The notes under the pieces were generated by a model. That model was not told the DNA's origin. It saw only the letters and a program-made list of their open reading frames with translations, and did no database searches. The translations under genes were made by a program, and so were the position numbers. Shown piece after piece: positions 17,630-43,245 of a DNA stretch of 64,000 bases (positions are counted from its first letter, which is position 1; the number at the start of each line of letters is the position of its first letter). This stretch comes from Maricaulaceae bacterium EIL42A08 (lineage in GTDB: Bacteria > Pseudomonadota > Alphaproteobacteria > Caulobacterales > Maricaulaceae), in NCBI GenBank assembly GCA_024178355.1, contig JAMZNZ010000001.1, positions 124,001 through 188,000 of the forward strand. The letters are read 5' to 3'.

Positions 17630-20272
17630 ATGAAAAAGAATTTGCTACTTGCGAGCAGCATGCTGGTCGCTGCGAGCTTTGGCGCTCCGGCAATGGCCCA
17701 GGAGGCCGAAGGCGCTGATCCGGTTCAGCGCGATACCATTATCGTGACGGCCACCAAGCGTGAGCAAACGCTTCAGGAAGTTCCCGTTGCGGTGTCGGTC
17801 GTTCAAGCAGAAACGCTGGAAACGGCTCAGATCGTTGACGCGATTGACCTTCAGTCCATCGTTCCTTCACTTCGCGTCAGCCAGCTTGAGCGCACCTCCA
17901 ACGCCACCTTCATCATTCGCGGCCAGGGCAATGGTGCGAACAACCCGGGCATCGAGCCATCGGTGGCTGTTTATATCGACGGTGTCTTCCGTCCGCGCGC
18001 CGGTTCGGCCCTGTCTGACCTGATCGGCCTTGAGCGCGTGGAAGTCCTGCGCGGCCCGCAGTCGACCTTGTTCGGCAAGAACGCCAGCGCTGGTGTGGTC
18101 AACATCGTCACCCAGCAGCCACAATTTGATTTCGGCGGTACCGCTGAAGTGACCGTGGGCAATTTCGGTGCCTCAATCTTCAAGGTCGGCGTAACGGGTC
18201 CGATCAGCGACAACCTCGCCTTCTCTCTGAGCGGCAGCGTGAACCAGCGCGACGGCTACTATGAGAATGTCGGCAATGGTGGCGACTTCAATGATCGCAA
18301 TCGCTGGGCCCTGCGCGGCCAGCTGCTCTATGTCGGCGAGAACTTCGAAGCCCGCCTGATCGTCGACGCTGACGAGATTGATGAACAGTGCTGCGGCACC
18401 GATCGTGTAATCGATGGTGCAGCAGGGGGTGCAATCCGCGGCCTTCTCGGCGGCCTGACCTCGGAAGGCAACTTCGCCTACACGATGGCCAGCGATTTTG
18501 CCAACGAGAACCAGGTGGAAAACACCGGCATCTCGCTGCAGCTGGATTGGGATCTTGGCGAAAACGCCACCTTCAGCTCGATCACCTCGCTTCGCCGCTA
18601 TGACGATTTTGTGGACTATGAAGGTGACTTCACCACGCTGTCCTTGCTGGGCGAGAACGTTCGCGCCCTCGACACCCAGACCTTTACCCAGGAATTCCGT
18701 CTGGCTGGCACGTGGAATGATCGCGTGGACTATCTGTTCGGCGCATATTTCTACGATGAGGACATGGTGGCCGATGACTCGCGCATTTACGGCACCGACA
18801 CGCGCGCCTATGTGGACATCCTGACCGGTGGTGGCGTGTCAGCGCTGGAAGCCCCGCTCGGCTTCGCTCCGGGAACCTTCTTTGCTCCTGGTGGTGGCAC
18901 TCGCTTTACCGCAGAGCAGAATGACAGCCAGTTCCAGCTGTTCTCACAGTTCGACTTTAATCTGACTGATCGTCTGGTTCTGACCGCGGGCATTGCCTAC
19001 TTTGAAGCGGAGAAGGAAGTGGACTTCACCAATGTGATCCGCACCAATCCCTTCTCCGACCTGAACTTTGTCGAAATCTATGTCGGCCAGGCTCTGGGCG
19101 GCTTTGGCGTTGATCCGACCGATCCGGCCCAGGTTGGGGCCTTTGCAACCAACCCGGCCACTGCACCGATCTTCGGCGCAATTATCGGGGCTTCCACGAC
19201 CTTCGTTGACCCGACCACCGGCATCGTCAATGACCCGGTTACGGGCCTGCCGGTCGCCAACCCGTTGCTGGATTTCTTCGCTCTGGGACTTCAGCCGCTG
19301 GGCGCGCTGACCCCATTCCCGAACTCGGTTGAGAACGGTCGCACCAATGACAGCGACACGCCGTACACGCTGCGTCTGGCTTATGACGCAACGGACCGCA
19401 CGAATGTCTATGCGTCCTACAGCCGTGGCTACAAGGCCTCGTCATGGAACCTGACGCCGGACACCCGTCCGAACACCGCTGACGTGGCGGCTCTGCGGGC
19501 TTCTGGGGAACTGGCAGCTGACAACGCTCTGGGCCTTCCGACCGTCGTCAACACGGCTGAAGCCCTTGGCGTCGCCGGTAACCAGCGCTTTGCGCGTCCT
19601 GAAATCACCACCACGCTGGAATTTGGTTTCAAGACCCGCTTCAGCTGGGGTTCGCTGGACCTGGCGGTCTTTGACCAGACGGTCGAAGACTTCCAGTCGT
19701 CGGTCTTTCAGGGTGCCGGCTTTGCCGTCATCAACGCCGGTGAGCAATCCTCGCTCGGCGTTGAGTTTGACTCCACCATCACACCGCCATCCATTCCGGG
19801 CCTGACCCTGACGCTGTCCGGCATCTGGATGGATGCTGAGTATGACGACTTCACCGGTGCACCGGTGGTGAGCGGCAGCGCAGTTGACGTGGCCGACGGC
19901 GTTGTCGACGGCACCGGTGACCTGTCGGGTCAGAAAGTTGCGGGCATCCCGGACTTTGCCGGTTCCTTCGCCATTGAGTACCGCCGTGACTTTGACTTCG
20001 GTGAAGGCTTTGTACGCGGTGACTACCAGTACGAATCCGACGTTCGCCTTCTGGAGAACCTGCCAGAATCGATCACCCGCGAGGTCAACACGATCAACGC
20101 ATCGGTCGGTGTGAACCTGAATAATGGCCTGGAAGCTCTGGTATGGGCTCGTAACCTCAATGAGGACGAGTACTACACCTCCGGCTTCCCGACCACGCTG
20201 CAGGCTGGCTCCTTCTCGGCCTATCCGAACCAGCCGCGGACCTATGGTCTGACCGTGCGCAGCCGCTTCTAG
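17630..20272 (+). CDS. TonB-dependent outer-membrane receptor
   Basis: An 880-residue receptor that imports an unknown ligand across the outer membrane using proton-motive force passed on by TonB. The signal peptide ends at APAMAQ (residue 24). The TonB box is DTIIVTATKR at about residues 35-44. The plug domain includes FIIRGQGNGANN, VAVYIDGVFRPR and VEVLRGPQSTLFGKNASAGV. The barrel ends in LTVRSRF with the terminal aromatic residue needed for BAM assembly. It belongs to the large iron/complex-carbohydrate class common in Caulobacterales and sphingomonads. A GGGGAGG ribosome site precedes the ATG and a strong terminator follows. The oxidoreductase group 700 bases downstream may use its cargo; that is inference. 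Confidence 0.94.
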   Translation: MKKNLLLASSMLVAASFGAPAMAQEAEGADPVQRDTIIVTATKREQTLQEVPVAVSVVQAETLETAQIVDAIDLQSIVPSLRVSQLERTSNATFIIRGQGNGANNPGIEPSVAVYIDGVFRPRAGSALSDLIGLERVEVLRGPQSTLFGKNASAGVVNIVTQQPQFDFGGTAEVTVGNFGASIFKVGVTGPISDNLAFSLSGSVNQRDGYYENVGNGGDFNDRNRWALRGQLLYVGENFEARLIVDADEIDEQCCGTDRVIDGAAGGAIRGLLGGLTSEGNFAYTMASDFANENQVENTGISLQLDWDLGENATFSSITSLRRYDDFVDYEGDFTTLSLLGENVRALDTQTFTQEFRLAGTWNDRVDYLFGAYFYDEDMVADDSRIYGTDTRAYVDILTGGGVSALEAPLGFAPGTFFAPGGGTRFTAEQNDSQFQLFSQFDFNLTDRLVLTAGIAYFEAEKEVDFTNVIRTNPFSDLNFVEIYVGQALGGFGVDPTDPAQVGAFATNPATAPIFGAIIGASTTFVDPTTGIVNDPVTGLPVANPLLDFFALGLQPLGALTPFPNSVENGRTNDSDTPYTLRLAYDATDRTNVYASYSRGYKASSWNLTPDTRPNTADVAALRASGELAADNALGLPTVVNTAEALGVAGNQRFARPEITTTLEFGFKTRFSWGSLDLAVFDQTVEDFQSSVFQGAGFAVINAGEQSSLGVEFDSTITPPSIPGLTLTLSGIWMDAEYDDFTGAPVVSGSAVDVADGVVDGTGDLSGQKVAGIPDFAGSFAIEYRRDFDFGEGFVRGDYQYESDVRLLENLPESITREVNTINASVGVNLNNGLEALVWARNLNEDEYYTSGFPTTLQAGSFSAYPNQPRTYGLTVRSRF

Positions 20273-27474: not shown

Positions 27475-29793
27475 ATGACGAGCTGGGTGATCCGTATAGG
27501 CGCTGGGCTGCTGGCGCTTTTGGTTTTGGTCGTTATCGGCATTGCTGGCTGGCTGGTGGAGCGCTTCCACGCCTCCAAGCCGCGCGAGACCGGTGAGATT
27601 GTGCTGCCCGCCGCCCCTGGAATGGCGCAGGTCGTACGCGATGAAAACGGGGTCGCTCACATCTTCGGCGAGAGCGACGAAGCAGTCTTCTACGCGCTTG
27701 GCTATACCCACGCCTCGGAGCGCTTTTTCCAGATGGACCTGGTCCGGCGCTATGTGCGAGGGCGTTTGTCAGAGCTTTTCGGACCCGATTATGTGCGCGT
27801 GGATGCCCGCACCCGTACGCTTGGCTATGCGCAGCTTTCTCAGTCCCTGTTACAATCCATGTCGCCGGAAACCCGCGCGGTGGTTGAGGCCTATGTCTCC
27901 GGCGTTAATGCGCGCGTCGAGGAGGGCAGTGTTGCGCCGGAATACGCCATCCTGCGCACAGCTCCTGAGGCCTGGACGCTAACCGACTCTGCTGCGGTGA
28001 TGGTCAGCTTTGCCGACGATCTGGCCGCCGGTCGCGGTGCCGACGTGGAGCGGGCTCGCCTGCGCGATATCCTCAATGAAGCTCAGCTTGGACAGTTCCT
28101 CGCCGGATACCCGGACTGGGGGCCCACAACGCTCAAGGACGAGGACGTACGCGCCAATTTTGGCGACGTTCGCACCCGCAGTCTGGCACCGCTTCCGCTG
28201 GCTCAGCCTGATAACCTTCCCGGTTCAAATGCATGGATCGTTTCGGGTGAGCGGTCAGAGACCGGGGCGCCGCTACTTGCCAATGACCCTCACTTGGGGC
28301 TGTCGACACCGTCCATCTGGTATTATACACGCCTGAACCTGGCAGACGGTCCGGTCATCGGAACAACGGCACCCGGGGCACCCTTTGTTATCCTTGGACG
28401 CAATACATCCATAGCCTGGGGCTTTACCAATACCGGCTTTGACGTCATCGATCTGGTCGAGCGCGACCCGGACAGCCTTCAGGTCACAGAGCGGGTTGAA
28501 GTCATTCAGGTCGCCGGCCAGAGCGACCCGGTTGAAATCACGGTTAAGGACACCGCTGAGGGACCTGTTCTTGATCCTCAATGGTTCGACCTGTCGCCCT
28601 TCCATCCGGACCTGGCGGTCATCCAGCGCTCCACGTTGAACCAGCCGGGGAACCGCGGCGCGGACGCGACCTATGGCCTGATGAAAGCGCGTAGCTGGGA
28701 CGAATTTGTCGATGCCGCCCGAGGCTATACCGTGCCAATGCAGAATATGCATTTTGCCCATGTCGACGGGACGATCGGCTACACGACCGCCGGGCTCCTG
28801 CCTATTCGCGATCAAGATACCGGCGACTGGACGGGTTTTGTGCCCTTTGAAGAGCTGCCGCGTGTGGTCAATCCGGCCGGCGGGATGATCATTTCGGGCA
28901 ATAATCTGGTCGCTGGCGACGCCTTCCCCTACCCGCTTCTGGGCAGCTATGGAGTCTATCGCGCGCCACGCATAGAAGCGCTGCTGAATGCTCAGCCGCT
29001 GCACTCGCTTGACAGCTTTGCGGACCTTCAGATGGATGTGACCAGCGAGCAGATCGCTCGCCTGCGCCCCGCACTGATGGCCGCTGAGCCTGAAAGCCAG
29101 CTCGGTGTCGAGGCGCTTGCGCGGCTTGAAACCTGGGACGGAAGGCTGGACGCCGATGGCCCGGAAGCCCTGATCATGGCCGCCTGGCTACGGGTCCTGT
29201 CCGGTGCAATCTGGAATGACGAGCTGGGCCCGGAAGCTGCGCGCAGCTTCAACCAGCCCCGTCGCGCCTTCCTGGAAGACGTGCTGATGGGCGAGGCTTC
29301 AGCCTGGTGCGATGACGTGCGTTCCACCGAGATGGAGACGTGTGCCCTCACTGCCGGTCTCGCGCTGGACGCCGCCATGGCTGAAACCGCCGACGCGTTC
29401 GGGCGCAACATGGACAGCTGGCGTTGGGGCGATGTGCACCAGGGCGATTTTGATCACCCGCTCGGCGACGTGCCGCTGGTGGGCAGTATGTTTGAAAACC
29501 GGGTGGGTGTGCCCGGGGACGGCTCGACGGTGAACGTCGCCCATTTCAGCTATCGCTCTGGCACCTATGACGTGTTTCACGCCGCCTCCATGCGGGCGAT
29601 CTACGATCTGTCAGAGCTCAACAATTCGCTCTACATGCATGCTCCGGGACAAAGCGGTCACCCGCTGTCTGCCCACCATGGAGACCTCGCTGAACGCTGG
29701 GCCAATGGTGAATACTTCCAGATCCGCGATGACTGGGGCGTTCAGAACGCGCCTGAAGGCTCGCGGGTCCTCGTGCTGAGGCCGGGAGACTAG
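27475..29793 (+). CDS. Penicillin acylase family N-terminal-nucleophile hydrolase
   Basis: A 772-residue precursor. Residues 7-28 form a signal/anchor helix, so the enzyme is exported. The alpha chain starts at AQVVRDENGVAHIFGESDEA, and EAVFYALGYTHASERFFQMD is typical. Autocleavage would occur before Ser251 in LPGSNAWIVSG, which becomes the N-terminal nucleophile of the beta chain. Supporting beta-chain blocks include GAPLLANDPHLGLSTPSIWY and NTSIAWGFTNTGFDV. Relatives hydrolyse beta-lactam side chains, acyl-homoserine lactones or peptides; with no luxI/luxR gene in view the substrate is open. The gene lies alone, followed at once by repeat E. Confidence 0.92.
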   Translation: MTSWVIRIGAGLLALLVLVVIGIAGWLVERFHASKPRETGEIVLPAAPGMAQVVRDENGVAHIFGESDEAVFYALGYTHASERFFQMDLVRRYVRGRLSELFGPDYVRVDARTRTLGYAQLSQSLLQSMSPETRAVVEAYVSGVNARVEEGSVAPEYAILRTAPEAWTLTDSAAVMVSFADDLAAGRGADVERARLRDILNEAQLGQFLAGYPDWGPTTLKDEDVRANFGDVRTRSLAPLPLAQPDNLPGSNAWIVSGERSETGAPLLANDPHLGLSTPSIWYYTRLNLADGPVIGTTAPGAPFVILGRNTSIAWGFTNTGFDVIDLVERDPDSLQVTERVEVIQVAGQSDPVEITVKDTAEGPVLDPQWFDLSPFHPDLAVIQRSTLNQPGNRGADATYGLMKARSWDEFVDAARGYTVPMQNMHFAHVDGTIGYTTAGLLPIRDQDTGDWTGFVPFEELPRVVNPAGGMIISGNNLVAGDAFPYPLLGSYGVYRAPRIEALLNAQPLHSLDSFADLQMDVTSEQIARLRPALMAAEPESQLGVEALARLETWDGRLDADGPEALIMAAWLRVLSGAIWNDELGPEAARSFNQPRRAFLEDVLMGEASAWCDDVRSTEMETCALTAGLALDAAMAETADAFGRNMDSWRWGDVHQGDFDHPLGDVPLVGSMFENRVGVPGDGSTVNVAHFSYRSGTYDVFHAASMRAIYDLSELNNSLYMHAPGQSGHPLSAHHGDLAERWANGEYFQIRDDWGVQNAPEGSRVLVLRPGD

Positions 29794-35671: not shown

Positions 35672-35706
35672 AAAAAAAAGCCCCGGCATCACTGCCGGGG
35701 CTTTTG
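35672..35706. terminator. Bidirectional terminator between M28 and BCCT genes
   Basis: Stem AGCCCCGGCA / TGCCGGGGCT with TCAC loop, flanked by an A8 run on the left and TTTT on the right. It serves the rightward M28 gene and the leftward BCCT gene. Confidence 0.92.
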
Positions 35707-35707
35707 C

Positions 35708-37654
35708 TTAGTTCACGTGGGCCATGTGGTGGAGCCACTGGCGGTGGCGTTCATAGTGGCGGATGAGGTCGCGGATCACCTGCTCTGTGGTGTAGCCATA
35801 AATGCAGTAATGCTGGCCCCCTTCAGCGAGGAAAACCTCGCCGCGTGAGTAGAGTCCCGAATTGCGGCCAGCTTCGCCCGGAGCCTCTTCGTCGTCATAG
35901 TTCTTCAGCATTATGCCATAGACGAAGTCCGGCTGGTCGCCATGGTCCACGGTGATCGACACCTCGTCCTCGGCTGTATCAATCCTTGAGCTCAAACCCT
36001 GACGTTCAAGTTCCGGGATGACAGCCTCAAAGGCCGGAACAACCTCTTCCTTCATCCATTTGCGGATATCTGCCTGGGTTGGCGTAGTGAACATCAGGCC
36101 GATGCGCGTCTTCCAGGAGACGCCCGTGCCCTCTACAGGCAGCTGGGCTGCGGTCTTGATGCCGGCTCGCCTGGCGGTCTCTTTCGACCAGGCGCGGATG
36201 AGCCCGATGAAGGCCAGGAAGATCACGATGGTGAAGGGCAGCGCGGCAGCAATTGTTGCTGCCTGCAGCGCGGCAAGTCCGCCCGCCAGCAACAGCGCTG
36301 AGGCGACCAAGCCTTCAGTCACCGCCCAGAAGAAGCGCTGCCAGACCGGCGGGGTCAGCGTGCCGCCAGAGGCCAGCGTGGATTTGACGAGAGATCCAGA
36401 GTCAGAGCTGGTCACAAAGAAGGTTGTCACCAGAATGATCGCCAGCACCGACGTGATGCCACTGAGTGGAAGCGTATCGAGGAAGGCAAACAGGGCCGCC
36501 GACATATTGCCGCCCGCAACCGCCGCCAGCGCGGGAGACGCCGCATCGGCGAGCGCCTGTTGCAACGCTGAATTCCCGAACACCGTCATCCACAGGAAGG
36601 TGAACAGGGTCGGGCCAAATATCACGCCGAAGACAAATTCGCGGATGGTTCGGCCCCGCGAGACACGCGCGATAAACATGCCGACAAACGGGCTCCAGGA
36701 GATCCACCAGCCCCAGTAGAAGAGCGTCCAGCTATTGATCCATTCGGTCTCGCCATAGGCTCCGACCCGGAAGGTCAGATCGGCGAGCTGGCTGACATAT
36801 TCACCAATATTCTGGACATAGGCGCTAATCAGGAAGAGCGTCGGCCCGGCGATCAGGGCAAAGGCCAGAAGCGCAATGGCGAGATAGAGATTCCACTCGC
36901 TCAAACGTTTGATGCCCGCATCGAGGCCAGCCAGCACCGAGGTGGTGGCAATGATCGTGATGATGATCACGAGAATGACCTGGATGTTGGTGCTCACTCC
37001 GATGCCGAACAGGGTATCGAGCCCGGAGTTGATCTGCGCGACACCAAAGCCCAGAGAGGTCGCGACGCCAAACAGCGTCCCCACAATCGCCACCACGTCG
37101 GCGGCATGGCCAATCGGTCCGTAAATGCGATCACCAATCAGCGGATAAAGCGCGGAGCGAATGGTCAGTGGCAAGCCGTGACGGAAGGAGAAATACGCCA
37201 GGCTCAAGCCAACAACCGCGTAGGTTGCCCAAGCGTGGATACCCCAGTGGAAGAAGGTGAGGACGATCGCTTCCTGGGCCTTTTCCGGCGTTCCTGGCTC
37301 GCCATAGGGCGCGTTCAGGAAATGCTCCAGCGGTTCGGCAACACCGAAGAACATCAGGCCAATGCCCATGCCGGCTGAGAACAGCATCGCAAACCAGGCC
37401 ATGAAGGAGAAATCGGGCTCGCTATCATCAGGCCCCAGCTTCAACCGCCCCCAGTCGGAAAACGCGACGATGATGGATCCCACAAGGAAAACGCCCACCC
37501 CTACAGAGTAGAACCAGCCCACATTGGTGGTGATCGTGTCGCGCAGCCAGGCAAACAGCTCCTCAGCCTGATCCCCGGCGATGATCGCGTAGGCCACACC
37601 GCCAAAGGCGATAACGGCAGCGGGGATAAAAACGGCGGGTTCAAACTTCTTCAT
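35708..37654 (-). CDS. BCCT family betaine/choline/carnitine transporter
   Basis: A 648-residue inner-membrane symporter. Twelve hydrophobic helices fill residues ~8-520. Family blocks are clear: AMLFSAGMGIGLMFFGVAEP, HWGIHAWATYAVVGL, and the substrate-site region FYWGWWISWSPFVGMFIARV followed by SRGRTIREF. The GMGIGLMFFG form is found in proton- and sodium-coupled members. A ~130-residue soluble C-terminal domain with charged helices could sense osmolarity, as in BetT-type proteins. Substrate may be glycine betaine, choline, DMSP or a relative. It lies 21 bases downstream of the sulfotransferase gene, so the two are probably co-transcribed. Confidence 0.93.
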   Translation of the reverse strand: MKKFEPAVFIPAAVIAFGGVAYAIIAGDQAEELFAWLRDTITTNVGWFYSVGVGVFLVGSIIVAFSDWGRLKLGPDDSEPDFSFMAWFAMLFSAGMGIGLMFFGVAEPLEHFLNAPYGEPGTPEKAQEAIVLTFFHWGIHAWATYAVVGLSLAYFSFRHGLPLTIRSALYPLIGDRIYGPIGHAADVVAIVGTLFGVATSLGFGVAQINSGLDTLFGIGVSTNIQVILVIIITIIATTSVLAGLDAGIKRLSEWNLYLAIALLAFALIAGPTLFLISAYVQNIGEYVSQLADLTFRVGAYGETEWINSWTLFYWGWWISWSPFVGMFIARVSRGRTIREFVFGVIFGPTLFTFLWMTVFGNSALQQALADAASPALAAVAGGNMSAALFAFLDTLPLSGITSVLAIILVTTFFVTSSDSGSLVKSTLASGGTLTPPVWQRFFWAVTEGLVASALLLAGGLAALQAATIAAALPFTIVIFLAFIGLIRAWSKETARRAGIKTAAQLPVEGTGVSWKTRIGLMFTTPTQADIRKWMKEEVVPAFEAVIPELERQGLSSRIDTAEDEVSITVDHGDQPDFVYGIMLKNYDDEEAPGEAGRNSGLYSRGEVFLAEGGQHYCIYGYTTEQVIRDLIRHYERHRQWLHHMAHVN

Positions 37655-37675
37655 TGGATGTCCTTTAGGGAGTCC

Positions 37676-39676
37676 CTATTGGTCGCGTCGCCAGTCGGTG
37701 AGCGTGGGGCCGAGCGCGTCTTTCAACGGGTCGAGCCAGGCCTCATACGGCCTCCAGGCCTCAAGGCCCTTGGTATTGATTGGCTGGCGCACCTGCTCGG
37801 AGCTGGCGGTGCGCACCTCTCGCTTTGTCTCATGGAAGTTGATGCAGGCCTCTTCAAAGTCCAGCCCGCAATAGTCGAGGATGCGGCGAACCTGGGCTTC
37901 TGTGTCGCTGACAACATCTTCGTAGATCACGCGCAGCACGGCACCGGGCATAACCGCATCCCAGTGGTCCATGAGATCCACATAACCGCGGTAGTAATGG
38001 CCAATTTCTTCAAGCCCGTAGGTGAATTCCTGACCCTCTGCAAACAGCTGCTTGAAGCCGGAAAAACAACAGCCGAGCGGGTCGCGGCGCGCATCAATAA
38101 TCTTCGCATTGGGAAGGATGAGCTTGATCATCCCGATATGCCGGAAATTATTCGGCATCTTGTCGGTGAAGAAGGGCGCATCCTTGCGGTGCACCGCTGT
38201 TTCATCAAGATAGCGCTGGCCAAGTTCCTGAAGCTTTTCAGGCTCAAGGTCATTGAGAATGCGCGGATATTTGGTGCGGTCAGAGAGTTTATCACGGCCA
38301 CGCAGATGCTGACTCAGCGCGATGATATTGGGCAGCTCCAGCGTGCCGTCCACCTGACTGTGGCTGGCCAGGATCTGCTCCAGCAGGGTGGAGCCTGCGC
38401 GCGGCAAACCGACGATGAAAATGGGATCTGATGCCGAATTGCCCTTACCAGCCTGCTTTTCAAACATAGCTGGCGTACAGAATTCTTTCTGCGCGGCAAA
38501 CTCAGCTTCCATCTGGTCGGTTGTGTACCGGGTTTGCAGCTTTTTCAGGCTGTTGCCACGCTGATAATACTCAAATGCGGCCTGATAGGCTTTGCGATCT
38601 TCAGCCGCCTTGCCCAGGGCAAAGCACAGATTGATACGGTTCGGCAGGGTCTGGCCCGGCGCAGCCTCAGCGGTGCGCATCGCCTCAAATTCATCATCGG
38701 AAAAGTTATAGGTTTTCAGATTGGCAAGGGCATACCAGGCGTCCCCGTGACTGGGCGCAGCCTTTGTGGCCTGCTTGTAGGACGCAACCGCATCGTCTGA
38801 CTTGCCCCAGGTTTTCAGCGCGTGACCGCGCGAGGTCAGGGTTGCCGGGTCTTCCGGCACGCGCTCCAACACGGCATTAAACAGCGCAACCGCGCCATCA
38901 TAATTGCCGGTCTGCATCCGCTCGATCGCGAGCTGGGAGGTGAAAACCGGGTTATCCGGATCGCGCCTGTGCAGGATTTCAGCCTGCGCGAGCGCTTTTT
39001 CGAATTTCTGGCGTTTACGCAGGATGCGCATGTAGTCGATGCGAGCCTCGACATTGTCCGGCTCGAACTCCACTGCGCTTTCCAGCAGAAATTCAGCATC
39101 CTCCAGAACGCCGAGTCGGTTACCCACCTCCGCCAGAAGGCGCATGGCCTCTACGTCACGCGGATGGCCCTGTAGCAAGTGACGACACAGCCCTTCAGCC
39201 TTCAACAGGCGGTTTTCATACAGGTGATGGGTCGCGGCCTGCAGCTCTCGCGGCATCTTGCGGACTCGCTCCGCCTGGGCGTAAGCGGTATTAGCGTCCG
39301 CAACGCGGCCCTTTTTATGAAGAATATCAGCCTGAGCGGCCCACGCGGCATGGAGCCCTGGATTGGCGCGCACCGCAGCCTGATAACAGGCAAGCGCCTG
39401 ATCCAGATCACCGCTATCACGATAAAGATGAGCTTCTTCCTGGAGGCCACGGCCGAAGTCTGGTGCAACCTGGCTCAACTGCCGGAGCGTCTTGGAAGCC
39501 TCGTCAAGGCGCTTGAGATACCGATAGCAGACCGCCTTCATGTAAAGGCCATCGGCGTGGTCAGCCTGAACCGCCAGTACGCCATCCAGCGCTCCAAGCG
39601 CGCGGGTAAAATCACCCGCCTGCATGGCGCTTTGCGCGGCTTTCAGGCCATCTGCCATTTCTGGCGTCTCGTTCAA
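37676..39676 (-). CDS. TPR-repeat sulfotransferase
   Basis: A 666-residue two-domain protein. Residues ~1-400 contain around ten tetratricopeptide repeats (for example ALACYQAAVRANPGLHAAWA and AVASYKQATKAAPSHGDAWY). The C-terminal third is a PAPS-dependent sulfotransferase: the 5'-phosphosulfate loop PIFIVGLPRAGSTLLEQIL near residue 420, and the 3'-phosphate region KIIDARRDPLGCCFSGFK. It should transfer sulfate to a substrate presented by the TPR part. The start is a TTG at 39676 with AGGGGAC six bases upstream; ATG 39658 is a weaker choice. It sits between a TonB receptor and a BCCT transporter on the same strand, a recurring receptor-TPR-sulfotransferase pairing in marine alphaproteobacteria as far as I recall. 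Confidence 0.9.
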   Translation of the reverse strand: MNETPEMADGLKAAQSAMQAGDFTRALGALDGVLAVQADHADGLYMKAVCYRYLKRLDEASKTLRQLSQVAPDFGRGLQEEAHLYRDSGDLDQALACYQAAVRANPGLHAAWAAQADILHKKGRVADANTAYAQAERVRKMPRELQAATHHLYENRLLKAEGLCRHLLQGHPRDVEAMRLLAEVGNRLGVLEDAEFLLESAVEFEPDNVEARIDYMRILRKRQKFEKALAQAEILHRRDPDNPVFTSQLAIERMQTGNYDGAVALFNAVLERVPEDPATLTSRGHALKTWGKSDDAVASYKQATKAAPSHGDAWYALANLKTYNFSDDEFEAMRTAEAAPGQTLPNRINLCFALGKAAEDRKAYQAAFEYYQRGNSLKKLQTRYTTDQMEAEFAAQKEFCTPAMFEKQAGKGNSASDPIFIVGLPRAGSTLLEQILASHSQVDGTLELPNIIALSQHLRGRDKLSDRTKYPRILNDLEPEKLQELGQRYLDETAVHRKDAPFFTDKMPNNFRHIGMIKLILPNAKIIDARRDPLGCCFSGFKQLFAEGQEFTYGLEEIGHYYRGYVDLMDHWDAVMPGAVLRVIYEDVVSDTEAQVRRILDYCGLDFEEACINFHETKREVRTASSEQVRQPINTKGLEAWRPYEAWLDPLKDALGPTLTDWRRDQ

Positions 39677-39727
39677 GTATGTCCCCTGCGCGTCTGGCGC
39701 GTCTTTTGGTCCAGTCTGCGGACAGGA

Positions 39728-39755
39728 AAGCGCCCCGCCGATTGGCGAGGCGCTT
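39728..39755 (-). promoter_or_regulatory. Intercistronic hairpin between TonB receptor and sulfotransferase
   Basis: Read leftward: AAGCGCCTCGCC-AATC-GGCGGGGCGCTT, a 12-bp stem with one G-T pair. No U-run follows, so it may be a partial terminator, processing or stability element that sets receptor expression above that of the downstream genes. Confidence 0.7.
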
Positions 39756-39806
39756 GTTACCCTGCCCGTTTACACGGTCGCGAACAACCGCAGGCGGTGT
39801 TGAGCC

Positions 39807-42422
39807 TTAGTAGCTCACACCGAGGCGGATGCCATAGGTGCGCGGACGGATGACCGTCTGGCGCTGGACATCGTTGATGAAGTTGTTGGCAATCACACCA
39901 TTCTCATTGGTGACGTTGTCAACAAATACCTCAACCGACCACTGAGAAGCGGTCACCCCCGTGCGAAGACCAAGCGTGGTGTAGCTCGGGTTCGGTGCGG
40001 CGTTGATCTCGATGATATCCGAACGGCTTTCGCCGGAGTAGATCGCCTGAGCCTGAACATGGGCCATGCGGGCATTGCCCAGATCCCACTCATAACGAGC
40101 ACGGGCATTCAGCTGCAAGCCTGGGGCAAAGGCCAGTTCCTCGCCAGCGACCACATCGTTGGTCGGGGTCAGAACTTCGGTGATCTCTGAGTCCAACATT
40201 GAGAACGAGCCGGTCAGCGTCAGGCCAGGAATGTCCATCGGCGCATAGGTCACGTCACCTTCAATACCCATCAGCTCTGCATTCGCCGCATTGTCGGAGA
40301 AGAAGAGGTTGGTGATGGACGGGTCGAAAATCGTCGTCTGAAGATTTTTGATGTCCACGAAGAAGGCATTACCGTTGAAGCGAACCTGATCGTCAGCAAG
40401 GTCCAGCTTCCAGCCGAGCTCATAGTTGGTCACTTCGTCGGTATCCAGAACAAACGGAACCACAAAGCCATTGGCACCTGGAGCACCACCAGGACGGTTC
40501 AACAGACCCGGACGGAAGCCTTCTGAATAGGTCGCGTAGAACATCATGCCGCTGCGCGGAGTCCAGTTACCGGTGAGCTTGAAGATTGCACCGTCGGTCG
40601 CGGCCACATCTGGCGCGCGAGCGGCGTTGAATATCTGCTCAGCCTGAGACTGGGACAGAAGCGGGTCAATCGCCAGAATATCAGCCACCGACTGGGTGTC
40701 GTTGTAGGTGATGTGGCGGCTGGTGTCACAGGTCCCGATGAAGGTGTACTGGCCATCGCCGTTATAAAGGTCGGAAATATCCGTACCAAAGGCGTTCGCG
40801 TCGGTTCCGCCAGAGTTACAGAACGACCCGTTCGCAGACCCTTCCAGGTCCACTTCGATGTCGTAATAGCGTGCGCCGGCCACGATAGAGAAGGTCGGGG
40901 TCAGATCGTAAGCCACCTCACCGAAGAGACCAAACTGATCGTCAGTACGACGGATGTCGTTACGGAAGATCACACCGGCCGGGAACGGACCTGGATCAGA
41001 AATATAACCCGTCATCTGCGGGAAGTTCGGCGCAAACGGACCAAACGGATCGGCAAAGGCCGAGCTGAAATAGGTAAAGTCGTTACGCTCTTTCACCTCG
41101 GTGGAGGAGTAGAACACACCTGCGGTCAGGCGCAGGTCGCGGTCCTGAGGTGTGTTGAAGCGGAATTCATGGCTTTCAACCGCGGTCTCGGTGAACGAGT
41201 CCACGACGGAACCTGGATCATAACAGGTGCCCGACGGAGCAGCAGCACCAGGATAGGTCACCGAGCCGTCACAGGTGTAGTACGGGAAGTACTGACCCAC
41301 GAACATATACTCGGTGTAATCCACAACCTGGTCGCTCTCGCGGTCGGTGTAGGCACCCGTGTAAACCACATCCAGCATCGCCAGACGGCCTTCAAGCGTC
41401 CACGAGAAGTTCGTGAACTCGTCTTCCAGGCTATCCTCCTCATAACGCTGGATTTCCCAGTCGTTGAGGTCAGGGTCCTGGAAGAAGACACCATCGGCTT
41501 CCAGCTCTTGCTGCATCACCGATGCAGTCAGACGCCAGTCTGCATTAAATTCATAGCGGCCAGACACGCGAAAACCGGTGTACGTAGCGTCGTTGAAATC
41601 TTCCTCAACGATGCCAGCGTTGTTGGCATCAATGAAGGTTACGCCAGACAGGTCTGCGCCAGCCTGGAAACCTGCACGAACACTAGAAACCGGCACACCG
41701 TTGTCGCGGACCGTACCGGCCGGACGGAAGCGCGCGGAGCGCGAGGTGTTTACCGTGCCTGGAACATTGTCGATGAAGCCCCCCTGGCGATCCCAGAAGG
41801 CGACGCCACGAACGGCAAACTGCTCACCGATCGGCAGGTTGACGACAGCTTCAAGGCTTTGGCTGTCTTCAGCGTCCTCAGTGAACTCGTAGCCGAAGTT
41901 TGCAGAGGCTGAATACTCGCCCAGCACCGGCTTGTTGGTGATCATGCGAACCGTACCGGCCTGCGATGACGCACCGAACAGGGTGCCCTGCGGTCCAGGC
42001 AGAACCTCGACACGCTCCAGGTCAACCGCATAGACGTCCAGGTTACGACCCGGCTGCGCCAGCGGCTGCTCATCGAGATAGAAAGCAACGTTTGGAGCCA
42101 GACCAGCCACACCAGCGGTGGTCAGGTTCGGCGTGGTGGATGCCAGACCGCGGATATAGATGGTGTTTTGGCCAGGACCGCCGCCACCAGCGGTCACGCC
42201 AGAAAGCTGCACCAGATAGTCTGTGAAGACGTCCACGTCATTTTCTTCAAGCGCGCGTGAGTCCAGCGCAGATACGGCCACGGGAATGGTCTGGGAGTCA
42301 GACTCCACTTTGGTCGCCGTCACCGTGATGCGTTCCACCTGAGCACTGGCTGCGCCACCAGCGGCGAATGCCACGGCTGCTGAAAGCATCGTCGTCGCAA
42401 GAGCGTGTTGCTTGAAGGTCAT
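39807..42422 (-). CDS. TonB-dependent outer-membrane receptor
   Basis: An 871-residue receptor. The signal peptide ends at AASAQ (residue ~28) and the TonB box ERITVTATKV follows directly. The plug shows NTIYIRGLASTTPN, VAFYLDEQPLAQPGRNLDVY and VEVLPGPQGTLFGASSQAG. The long barrel ends in YGIRLGVSY. The plug has PGPQGTLFG where RGPQGTLFG is usual. Four Cys occur in two extracellular loop regions (TCDGS...GTCYD and SFCNSGG...GTCD), unusual for barrels and possibly disulphide-linked. The downstream TPR-sulfotransferase and BCCT genes share its strand. Ligand unknown; sequence type resembles receptors for glycans or modified small molecules. Confidence 0.93.
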   Translation of the reverse strand: MTFKQHALATTMLSAAVAFAAGGAASAQVERITVTATKVESDSQTIPVAVSALDSRALEENDVDVFTDYLVQLSGVTAGGGGPGQNTIYIRGLASTTPNLTTAGVAGLAPNVAFYLDEQPLAQPGRNLDVYAVDLERVEVLPGPQGTLFGASSQAGTVRMITNKPVLGEYSASANFGYEFTEDAEDSQSLEAVVNLPIGEQFAVRGVAFWDRQGGFIDNVPGTVNTSRSARFRPAGTVRDNGVPVSSVRAGFQAGADLSGVTFIDANNAGIVEEDFNDATYTGFRVSGRYEFNADWRLTASVMQQELEADGVFFQDPDLNDWEIQRYEEDSLEDEFTNFSWTLEGRLAMLDVVYTGAYTDRESDQVVDYTEYMFVGQYFPYYTCDGSVTYPGAAAPSGTCYDPGSVVDSFTETAVESHEFRFNTPQDRDLRLTAGVFYSSTEVKERNDFTYFSSAFADPFGPFAPNFPQMTGYISDPGPFPAGVIFRNDIRRTDDQFGLFGEVAYDLTPTFSIVAGARYYDIEVDLEGSANGSFCNSGGTDANAFGTDISDLYNGDGQYTFIGTCDTSRHITYNDTQSVADILAIDPLLSQSQAEQIFNAARAPDVAATDGAIFKLTGNWTPRSGMMFYATYSEGFRPGLLNRPGGAPGANGFVVPFVLDTDEVTNYELGWKLDLADDQVRFNGNAFFVDIKNLQTTIFDPSITNLFFSDNAANAELMGIEGDVTYAPMDIPGLTLTGSFSMLDSEITEVLTPTNDVVAGEELAFAPGLQLNARARYEWDLGNARMAHVQAQAIYSGESRSDIIEINAAPNPSYTTLGLRTGVTASQWSVEVFVDNVTNENGVIANNFINDVQRQTVIRPRTYGIRLGVSY

Positions 42423-42735: not shown

Positions 42736-43245
42736 ATGATAGATCACGACGCCATACTGATCGCCCTGCGACGAATTACGCGCGCCATTGATCTGCAATC
42801 CAAGCGTCTAATGAAGACGACCGGGCTGACGGCACCACAGCTCGTCATCCTTCAACTCTTAAAGCGCGAAGGCGTGCTGTCTTCCGGAGCGATTGCCCGC
42901 GCGGTTCTACTCAGCCAGGCGACCGTCACATCAATTGTCGAGCGCCTGGAACGGGGAGGCCTCGTCAAGCGCCGACGCGGCGAAACCGACCGACGGCAGG
43001 TCTTCGTGGAACTGACTGAAGAAGGCCTTGCCAAGATGGAGGCCGCGCCTGAGCTTTTGCAAGCCGGGTTTGTGAAAGCCTTCGACAAGCTGGAAAGCTG
43101 GGAGCAGCACATGCTGATCGCCTCGGTCGAGCGTATCGCAGAGCTAATGGATGCCGAAGACCTTTCAGCCTCTCCCATTCTGGACGTTGGCGAATTTGAA
43201 ATGCGCGATGGCGCAGCCCTGTCCCCAGCTTCAGAGACAGAATAA
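42736..43245 (+). CDS. MarR family transcriptional regulator
   Basis: 169 residues with the winged-helix fold of MarR: LTAPQLVILQLLKREG, the recognition helix region SSGAIARAVLLSQATVTSIV, ERLERGGLVKRR and the wing GETDRRQVFVELTEEG. It acts as a dimer on inverted-repeat operators and is usually released by a small ligand. The acidic C-terminal tail (after residue 145) is extra. The stop overlaps the start of the CorA-type gene (TAATG), so the pair is coupled. It may control its own operon and the divergent TonB receptor; that is inference from position. Confidence 0.92.
   Translation: MIDHDAILIALRRITRAIDLQSKRLMKTTGLTAPQLVILQLLKREGVLSSGAIARAVLLSQATVTSIVERLERGGLVKRRRGETDRRQVFVELTEEGLAKMEAAPELLQAGFVKAFDKLESWEQHMLIASVERIAELMDAEDLSASPILDVGEFEMRDGAALSPASETE

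What the first reader, a model, noticed from the sequence alone, without database searches (positions are those of the whole stretch)
35708..42422. TonB receptor - hairpin - TPR-sulfotransferase - BCCT transporter unit
Three leftward genes with gaps of 130 and 21 bases, a 12-bp hairpin without U-run after the receptor gene, and barrel loops with paired cysteines. Known: BCCT proteins carry quaternary ammonium or sulfonium solutes; sulfotransferases use PAPS. Inference: import of a ligand that is sulfated or whose receptor-side glycan is sulfated, or production of a sulfated osmolyte. I know of no described pathway with this set.
Basis: inference. Interest (0 to 1): 0.52.

Follow-up and report, generated by a model that had tools for sequence, protein, structure and literature searches.

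The report
Outer-membrane receptor with linked sulfotransferase
A marine bacterium carries a conserved gene unit that pairs an outer-membrane uptake receptor with an enzyme shaped like the human enzyme that adds sulfate to protein tyrosines and with an inner-membrane betaine-type transporter, which suggests, but does not prove, that bacteria decorate some surface receptors with sulfate.

Summary
The trio is real and conserved. In 80 related loci a TonB-dependent receptor (TBDR) gene lies directly upstream of the TPR-sulfotransferase gene in 76 (64 of 66 with complete flanks); a BCCT gene is in 55 of those 66, in six arrangements, MarR in 45. In the genus, TBDR and sulfotransferase are both present in 11 of 15 genomes and both absent in the other 4. 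The sulfotransferase clade has 20 of 21 genes within 600 bp of TBDR genes of at least four unlike lineages, so it goes with receptors, not with BCCT. Its catalytic domain matches animal tyrosylprotein sulfotransferases best (Z 21-22) and keeps their catalytic residues. The receptor has an invariant Asp/Tyr-rich, Cys-flanked, predicted extracellular loop; an untargeted scan ranks it as the top Tyr difference from unlinked receptors, and an unrelated linked lineage shows a similar peak, but two other lineages do not. Best reading: TBDR and BCCT import a betaine-like solute; the sulfotransferase modifies the receptor, possibly on tyrosine. No chemistry was tested.

The parts
39807..42422 (-). TonB-dependent receptor (871 aa), plug and barrel
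   Evidence: PF07715 and PF00593; model m44e6257f4d59 pLDDT 82.2, nearest solved folds are siderophore TBDRs
41223..41321 (-). Receptor residues 368-400: Asp/Tyr-rich, Cys-flanked loop DYTEYMFVGQYFPYYTCDGSVTYPG...C, predicted extracellular
   Evidence: D368, Y369, Y372, Y382, C384, Y390, C400 invariant in 31 of 31; long loop between strands 350-368 and 405-423 whose neighbouring turns are short
39728..39755 (-). Hairpin in the gap between receptor and sulfotransferase, 12-bp stem, no long U-run
   Evidence: a stem of 11-18 bp in 20 of 20 relatives examined
37676..39676 (-). TPR-sulfotransferase (666 aa, TTG start)
   Evidence: TPR models and PF13469; model m056f6480650d pLDDT 89.8, pTM 0.86
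37685..38443 (-). Sulfotransferase domain, residues 412-664, TPST-like fold; R426, E447, K506, S625 invariant
35708..37654 (-). BCCT transporter (648 aa) with a C-terminal extension as in the BetT model PRK09928
   Evidence: PF02028 630.8 bits; PRK09928 aligned over 3-643 but below its cut-off; closest solved chain 8ybq, E 2.9e-161
35672..35705 (-). Terminator-like hairpin plus T-run after BCCT
   Evidence: read; folded; not listed by the simple scan
42736..43245 (+). MarR-family regulator, divergent from the receptor; in the neighbourhood of the unit in many relatives
   Evidence: PF01047; in 45 of 66 loci with complete flanks

Best explanation
The unit is a TonB-dependent uptake operon with its own receptor-modifying enzyme. 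The receptor brings a quaternary-ammonium-type solute (glycine betaine or a relative) across the outer membrane, the BCCT symporter takes it across the inner membrane, and MarR probably regulates the unit in many members. The TPR-sulfotransferase acts in the cytoplasm with PAPS on the unfolded receptor precursor before export: the OGT-like TPR superhelix holds the precursor and the TPST-like domain sulfates it, most likely on tyrosines of the Asp/Tyr-rich extracellular loop. Sulfotyrosines there would give an anionic aromatic surface for cationic or zwitterionic ligand capture. The gap hairpin probably keeps receptor mRNA more abundant or more stable than that of the enzyme. Shown: conserved unit, receptor linkage of the enzyme, TPST-like predicted fold and residues, the loop, the hairpin. 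Inferred: co-transcription, substrate class, sulfation of the receptor, its site and effect. Separate estimates: conserved functional unit 0.9; betaine-type solute 0.7; enzyme acts on the receptor 0.45; on that loop's tyrosines 0.3.
For: Linkage: TBDR directly upstream in 76 of 80 loci; BCCT in 55 of 66 and MarR in 45 of 66 loci with complete flanks. STFs above 650 bits (own profile): 20 of 21 within 600 bp of a TBDR, against 7 of 21 at 300-650 and 1 of 25 at 100-300; the 21 form one clade (support 99/100) whose partners are at least four unlike TBDR lineages. Of 21 TBDR genes of this family in 41 genomes of the order, 19 are next to an STF, 1 is cut by a contig end, 1 has its STF 2.7 kb off; of 20 lower-scoring TBDRs that I picked, 0 have one in the 11-12.5 kb fetched. 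Genus: both present in 11 of 15, both absent in the same 4. BCCT follows the receptor subtype: 52 of 56 for core TBDRs, 2 of 7 for divergent ones. Enzyme: the first 7 rows of the structure comparison are TPST1, TPST2 and tick TPST, Z 21.3-22.0, rmsd 2.6-3.2, 234-243 aligned. R426, E447 (+21) and K506 (+80) have the spacing of R79, E100, K159 of TPST1 (residues from PMC5562738, passages) and are invariant in 34 of 34, as is S625. APS kinase present. Loop: top Tyr excess over unlinked TBDRs (+5.9 per 30 residues) and, in an unrelated lineage, +5.1 at a Cys-flanked Asp/Tyr segment; Asp at -1, which human TPSTs prefer, is invariant before Y369 in 31 of 31. BCCT: GxGxG in 61 of 61; aromatic box kept in 57 of 61, one Phe for Trp or Tyr in the other 4. 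Sarcosine-oxidase genes beside the unit in 5 loci of 4 genomes.
Against: Two of four receptor lineages linked to this STF clade (L104, L095; one linked member each) show no special Tyr cluster, and an 82% identical unlinked paralog of L095 has nearly the same Tyr content. In the score range of the 20 controls, six TBDRs that I did not pick are beside shorter STFs (L096, L101, L103, L108, L110, L114) and lack the Tyr-rich loop. Linked receptors of the main lineage are one family, so the Tyr loop may be inherited and may be a plain aromatic cage; L093 lacks the Asp before Y369, and L098 and L107 lack the cysteine. Foldseek itself ranks TPR proteins first and shows no TPST in its first 50 rows; by sequence a polyketide-synthase sulfotransferase is nearly as close as TPST. 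TPST-like residues may be general to PF13469; unlinked members were not checked. No sulfated receptor is shown. The enzyme would have to act before Sec export. The window's genome has no soxA match. NCBIfam scores are below the cut-offs of both the choline and the betaine BCCT models.
Confidence: 0.4

Rival explanations
1. The sulfotransferase acts on a small molecule: it sulfates the imported solute or makes a sulfated osmolyte such as choline-O-sulfate.
For: The gene ends 21 bases before a BCCT gene in the window, and BCCT is in 55 of 66 complete loci.
Against: Members of the same STF clade are next to TBDRs with no BCCT in the stretch fetched (for example L098, L102, L105, L107, L109), and 11 of 66 complete loci have no BCCT. 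The domain is TPST-like. The BCCT has the Gly motif that I recall for betaine carriers rather than the Asp that I recall for choline carriers.
Confidence: 0.17
2. The enzyme serves the receptor but in another way: as a TPR holdase or export chaperone, or by sulfating another envelope partner (glycan, lipoprotein, TonB/ExbD variant) that works with receptors of several kinds.
For: Strong general link to receptors of unlike lineages; the Tyr-loop signal is missing in two of four lineages.
Against: R426, E447, K506 and S625 are invariant in 34 of 34 orthologs, so catalysis seems kept; apart from STF, TBDR, BCCT and MarR, no gene cluster was found in more than 15 of the 146 loci then held.
Confidence: 0.3
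3. The Tyr-rich loop is only an aromatic cage for the quaternary ammonium ligand and has nothing to do with the sulfotransferase (compatible with the previous rival).
For: Aromatic cages bind such ligands (general knowledge); the BCCT shares an aromatic box.
Against: The Tyr loop is also in linked TBDRs with no BCCT in the stretch held (L102, L105), and a second, unrelated STF-linked lineage (4 receptors) has a Tyr/Asp cluster that 12 unlinked paralogs lack.
Confidence: 0.3
4. Neighbourhood by descent only: the genes are side by side without functional link.
For: Most of the loci come from related families.
Against: Six BCCT placement/length classes, several BCCT sequence types, records labelled Alpha- and Gammaproteobacteria, joint absence in the genus.
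Confidence: 0.04

Closest known systems
Animal tyrosylprotein sulfotransferases TPST1/TPST2 and tick TPST (5wrj, 3ap1, 8w5z)
   Same: Predicted fold over about 240 residues, R/E/K/S catalytic set with the same spacing for the first three, SxxQV..PxN segment
   Different: About 20% identity; fused to about ten TPRs (helix pairs of the model); bacterial; protein substrate not shown
RaxST of Xanthomonas, the known bacterial TPST (PMC9372746 passages; PMC6637879 one passage)
   Same: Bacterial, cytoplasmic, described as most similar to metazoan TPST, acts before substrate secretion
   Different: RaxST modifies the peptide RaxX in a raxX-raxSTAB cluster; here TPR fusion and a TBDR neighbour. I did not compare the sequences
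O-GlcNAc transferase (OGT), TPR part
   Same: TPR superhelix in front of a group-transfer domain that modifies proteins
   Different: Sulfotransferase in place of the glycosyltransferase domain; the match is of a common repeat fold
TonB-dependent receptors with siderophore-receptor fold (FyuA 4epa, FptA 1xkw)
   Same: Plug and barrel fold
   Different: 14-16% identity in the structural alignment; siderophore subfamily cut-off not met; ligand inferred from BCCT
BCCT carriers: 8ybq (BCCT family transporter), 8zw8 (trimethylamine transporter), BetP
   Same: Family match, GMGIG segment and aromatic box as aligned
   Different: Below NCBIfam cut-offs for choline BetT and glycine-betaine carriers
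TBDR loci with other modifying enzymes (halogenase/SapC/hydroxylase clusters; recalled, no call)
   Same: A receptor gene kept beside a modifying enzyme of unclear target
   Different: Other enzyme class; not tested here

Membership tests
Tyrosylprotein sulfotransferase (TPST) | TPST fold of the sulfotransferase domain | tested here: met
   Z 21.3-22.0, rmsd 2.6-3.2, 234-243 residues aligned for seven TPST entries; next sulfotransferase 4gox Z 17.8, rmsd 4.3 (a second look at Foldseek's 1000 best chains, on a predicted model)
Tyrosylprotein sulfotransferase (TPST) | Catalytic Arg, Glu, Lys, Ser (R79, E100, K159, S286 of TPST1) | tested here: met
   R426, E447, K506, S625 invariant in 34 of 34; R, K and S aligned, E by equal spacing (+21) only, since HMMER puts a gap there; residue names
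Tyrosylprotein sulfotransferase (TPST) | Transfers sulfate from PAPS to protein tyrosine | not testable with these tools
   needs an assay; APS kinase for PAPS is present in the genome
RaxST / raxX-raxSTAB system | Neighbouring RaxX-type peptide and type I export genes | not tested
   no short-peptide or export-gene search was made; the recurrent neighbours are TBDR, BCCT, MarR
TonB-dependent receptor | Plug and beta-barrel domains | tested here: met
   PF07715 51.3 bits, PF00593 105.6 bits; barrel model
TonB-dependent siderophore receptor subfamily | NCBIfam TIGR01783 cut-off 223.5 bits | tested here: not met
   106.5 bits
BCCT family | PF02028 and TIGR00842 cut-offs | tested here: met
   630.8 bits against 27; 532.9 against 407.55
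Choline carrier BetT (NF007399) | Cut-off 695 bits | tested here: not met
   639.5 bits
Glycine betaine BCCT (NF047988) | Cut-off 650 bits | tested here: not met
   576.1 bits
Betaine-type BCCT mechanism | Aromatic box and GxGxG in TM3 (positions recalled from BetP) | tested here: met
   window and 60 locus BCCTs aligned; GxGxG in 61 of 61; of the box residues 2 of 61 have Phe for a Trp and 2 others Phe for the Tyr

The most novel reading that the evidence does not exclude
Bacteria of several orders carry dedicated TPR-fused tyrosylprotein sulfotransferases that sulfate an extracellular, cysteine-flanked tyrosine cluster of their partner TonB-dependent receptors before export. This would be a post-translational modification of outer-membrane transporters that I know of nowhere else, reused on unlike receptor lineages, with the betaine/BCCT unit of this window as one specialised case.
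Probability: 0.3. Interest if true: 0.87.

Novelty: new variant of a known kind. Interest (0 to 1): 0.6.

Why it matters
A review says that most bacteria do not encode TPST, with some Xanthomonas (RaxST) as the known case (PMC9372746, passages). If the receptor-linked clade described here sulfates proteins, tyrosine sulfation would be a wider bacterial modification with a defined target class, outer-membrane receptors, and would bear on ligand capture, phage and bacteriocin binding. The BCCT linkage also suggests a ligand class for a TBDR family, and makes uptake of betaine-type osmolytes through the outer membrane directly testable.

Tried and rejected
Rejected or left open: a siderophore role (siderophore subfamily cut-off not met; no dedicated search for siderophore genes was made). 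Choline as BCCT substrate: below the BetT cut-off, and the Gly motif speaks against it; not excluded. Betaine catabolism as the general role: sarcosine-oxidase-type genes are beside the unit in L036, L040, L050, L061 and L088 (L061 and L088 share contig length and gene order, so I count 4 genomes); models were run only on soxA of L040 and L058 and on soxB and soxG of L061 (over cut-off: L040 soxA and L061 soxB), the rest rests on sequence clusters. soxA is in 1 of 10 genomes checked and not in the window's genome. A TauD-family gene follows BCCT in L010, L020, L070 and L090 (L070 and L090 have equal contig lengths); only L020's was scanned: over the Pfam cut-off, below the taurine dioxygenase cut-off. 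Left open.

Led nowhere: the count of [DE]Y pairs hardly separates linked from unlinked TBDRs (medians 5 and 4). The maximum Tyr count in 30 residues separates the main lineage (median 7, n 93) from controls (median 4, n 20, range 2-7), while five linked receptors of other lineages have 5-6 and six of the far pairs 4-7 (its group 'other' also held L124 and L139, which are over 1 kb from an STF). Lineages L104 and L095 show no convincing Tyr peak. The promoter scan was uninformative. The structure search of the TBDR gave only generic receptors among the 50 rows shown.

Dropped rows: 14 of 80 loci without complete flanks were left out of the BCCT and MarR counts. L079 was left out of alignment A1 because its stretch holds a stop. 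In one search two antisense ORFs were dropped from the unlinked set; L113 and the far pairs were left out of the main-lineage comparison; L046's second TBDR (no STF visible, the stretch ends) was counted as linked. L029 and L080 are one contig. The 20 control TBDRs were picked by me from rows of 107-167 bits, not all of them; six TBDRs of that range that I did not pick are beside shorter STFs. In one search distances are between stop-to-stop frames. For G006 and G011 adjacency is read from coordinates only.

Literature: ten searches over open-licence PMC papers only, with capped listings (12 of 33, 12 of 1,003). In what I saw no paper links TPR-sulfotransferases with TBDRs; the two papers each were seen as listings only. 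One halotolerance paper lists TBDR, BCCT and sulfotransferase clusters in separate table rows (PMC10040529, passages). A 2024 TBDT review has no occurrence of six terms such as sulfotransferase, betaine, post-translational (PMC11658791, term search).
Full report
What is there. The window is G000:C3:124001-188000 of a 2.99-Mb genome. The best ortholog of its sulfotransferase is in an Oceanicaulis MAG (L007, 77%), so the host is probably a member of the Maricaulaceae (inference). Three minus-strand genes, TBDR 39807-42422, TPR-sulfotransferase (STF) 37676-39676 and BCCT 35708-37654, are separated by 130 and 21 bases. A 12-bp hairpin without a long U-run lies in the first gap and a hairpin with a T-run follows BCCT. 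A MarR gene lies 313 bases upstream of the receptor on the other strand.

Conservation of the unit. One scan of GTDB species genomes with the STF gave 80 loci, most from records named after Maricaulales/Hyphomonadales genera, some from Sphingomonadales, Iodidimonas, Kordiimonas, Emcibacter, Rhodothalassium, Rhodobiaceae, Cellvibrionales and Wenzhouxiangella records, several of them MAGs. In 76 of 80 a TBDR gene is directly upstream on the same strand (64 of 66 loci with complete flanks). BCCT is somewhere in the locus in 55 of the 66 and MarR in 45. BCCT lies upstream divergent (31), downstream same strand (13 long, 7 short), downstream opposite (2) or upstream same strand (2), and several BCCT sequence types are involved. 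So the set is kept together while the arrangement changes. In the genus, the STF ortholog and the TBDR family are both present in 11 of 15 genomes and both absent in the same 4; 7 of 7 genus loci whose flanks I read, and the window, show TBDR-STF-BCCT in this order. The gap hairpin has an 11-18-bp stem in 20 of 20 relatives examined, with 0-14 of 500 shuffles as good.

The enzyme goes with receptors, not with BCCT. I fetched 60 regions around PF13469 genes picked from the best rows for 41 genomes of the order. By STF-profile score: above 1000 bits 9 of 9 and 650-1000 bits 11 of 12 lie within 600 bp of a TBDR gene; 300-650 bits 7 of 21; 100-300 bits 1 of 25. In a maximum-likelihood tree of 67 STF C-terminal stretches (last 330 residues) the 21 high scorers form one clade (support 99/100), 20 of them TBDR-linked; the exception L113 has its TBDR 2.7 kb away. 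Over the whole tree the label needs 7 changes against 21.6 in shuffles, so linkage also occurs outside this clade. Partners include the A2 receptor family, the roughly 1050-aa receptors of L109/L111/L112, and those of L104 and L095; the STFs of L095 and L098 are close in the tree while their TBDRs score 26 and 811 bits with the same profile. The window's genome has 22 Plug matches and two high-scoring STFs (window 1087 bits, L109/L202 702 bits), each directly downstream of a TBDR; a third, weak one (L146, 129 bits) has no TBDR in its stretch. In a class-wide sample of 190 genomes, own included, 7 have a match at E <= 1e-120; five further loci above 800 bits (L194-L197, L199) all have a TBDR next to them, the two lower ones (L198, L201) show none in the stretch held. 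From the receptor's side: of 21 TBDR genes of the A2 family in 41 genomes, 19 are next to an STF, one is cut by a contig end and one has it 2.7 kb off. Of 20 lower-scoring TBDRs that I picked none has an STF in the 11-12.5 kb held, but six others of that score range, not picked, are beside shorter STFs. BCCT instead follows the receptor subtype: present with 52 of 56 core TBDRs, 2 of 7 divergent ones, 1 of 1 broken one and 0 of 2 loci without an adjacent TBDR.

What the enzyme is. The AlphaFold2 model (34-sequence alignment; pLDDT 89.8, pTM 0.86) has a TPR superhelix (about 1-400) and a sulfotransferase domain. In the VIA comparison the first seven rows are human TPST1, TPST2 and tick TPST for residues 412-664 (Z 21.3-22.0, rmsd 2.6-3.2 A, 234-243 aligned, 19-20% identity); the next sulfotransferase, an olefin-synthase domain, has Z 17.8 and rmsd 4.3; the TPR part matches OGT. 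Foldseek's own ranking of the whole model shows no TPST in its first 50 rows, which are TPR and other repeat proteins. By sequence the domain's best solved hit is tick TPST (E 4.7e-8), with the olefin-synthase domain close behind (9.2e-8), so sequence alone does not separate them. TPST1's catalytic residues are R79, E100, K159, S286 (PMC5562738, passages); R426, E447 (+21), K506 (+80) here have the same spacing and S625 sits in the aligned SSEQV..PIN segment; all four are invariant in 34 of 34 orthologs. APS kinase is in the genome, so PAPS can be made. A bacterial TPST (RaxST) is described as cytoplasmic, acting before export (PMC9372746, passages), so cytoplasmic modification of a secreted protein has a precedent.

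A candidate target site. Residues 368-400 of the receptor read DYTEYMFVGQYFPYYTCDGSVTYPG...C. D368, Y369, Y372, Y382, C384, Y390 and C400 are invariant in 31 of 31 receptors; position 371 is D or E in 27 of 31. In the model (pLDDT 82.2) this is a long loop between strands 350-368 and 405-423, with short turns on the far side of both strands, hence extracellular (inference from topology). A scan along the alignment for Tyr excess in linked over unlinked TBDRs (38 against 20) peaks here: 6.55 against 0.65 Tyr per 30 residues, a difference of 5.9; the next window (2.7) overlaps it and the next beyond is 1.6. In the unrelated receptor lineage of the window genome's second pair (4 linked against 12 unlinked paralogs) the same scan peaks at YNIDYFTAGNGFADGDYFSNRYY, 5.5 against 0.42, again between two cysteines; next 2.2, then 1.7. 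Against this, L104 and L095, each the only linked member of its lineage that I had, show weak peaks (3.1 and 1.75), and L095's 82% identical unlinked paralog is nearly the same. Linked receptors with no BCCT in the stretch (L102, L105) keep DYxEYAEY...DYYTC; L098 and L107 keep DYxDY without the cysteine; L093 has AY in place of DY; L113, whose STF is 2.7 kb off, has DNTAY; the far pairs lack the cluster. So the loop follows the enzyme better than it follows the transporter, but the data are two lineages for and two against.

The solute. The BCCT matches the family over its full length; NCBIfam choline and betaine models score below their cut-offs. 61 of 61 BCCTs aligned have GxGxG where I recall BetP's Na+/betaine motif (choline BetT has Asp there, recalled), and 57 of 61 keep all aromatic box residues. 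Sarcosine-oxidase-type genes are beside the unit in 5 loci of 4 genomes; soxA of L040 (1441.5 bits) and soxB of L061 (707.1 bits) are over their cut-offs, soxG of L061 is below. Further out in that genome (L147) come an FAD-oxidoreductase/GcvT-type fusion, which I read as dimethylglycine-dehydrogenase-like though no model reached its cut-off, and a regulator whose best model is BetI, below cut-off. soxA is absent from the window's genome. A betaine-type solute used for osmoprotection or as nutrient is the best inference.

How it probably works. Receptor and BCCT form the two steps of uptake; the enzyme, presumably made from the same transcript at a lower level past the hairpin, most likely modifies the receptor precursor. 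The shown parts are linkage, predicted fold, residues, loop and hairpin. Co-transcription, sulfation of the receptor, its site and its effect on binding are inference. I put 0.45 on the enzyme acting on the receptor and 0.3 on the loop's tyrosines.

Novelty. The parts are known families; their combination as a conserved unit, and the clade of receptor-linked TPST-like enzymes, did not turn up in the searches (open-licence PMC only, listings capped). If receptor sulfation is shown it would be categorically new; on present evidence it is a new variant of a TonB-dependent uptake locus.

Noticed in passing
G000:C1:1096872-1101900 (L109 1773-6810): Second pair in the same genome: a 1052-aa TBDR of an unrelated lineage with a TPR-sulfotransferase (36% identical to the window's) directly downstream and an Asp/Tyr-rich Cys-flanked segment.
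   Followed up: yes
L010, L020, L070, L090: TauD/TfdA-type gene after BCCT on the same strand; only L020's was scanned (205 bits against the taurine dioxygenase cut-off 313), the others share its sequence cluster.
   Followed up: partly
L036, L040, L050, L061/L088, L147: Sarcosine-oxidase-type genes beside the unit; in L147 also an FAD-oxidoreductase/GcvT fusion and a BetI-like TetR regulator.
   Followed up: partly
L096, L101, L103, L108, L110, L114: A second type of link: lower-scoring TPR-sulfotransferases beside TBDRs, divergent in orientation except in L114, without the Tyr-rich loop.
   Followed up: partly
L023 4088-6750 and L067: TBDR split in two frames in L023; about 4.7 kb of other genes between TBDR and STF in L067.
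   Followed up: no
window 27475-29793: Gene with only a weak match to the acylase PvdQ model (38.5 bits, cut-off 950); not identified further.
   Followed up: no
window 17630-20272: Another TBDR in the window (880 aa); no STF-like gene was matched near it in the own-genome search.
   Followed up: no
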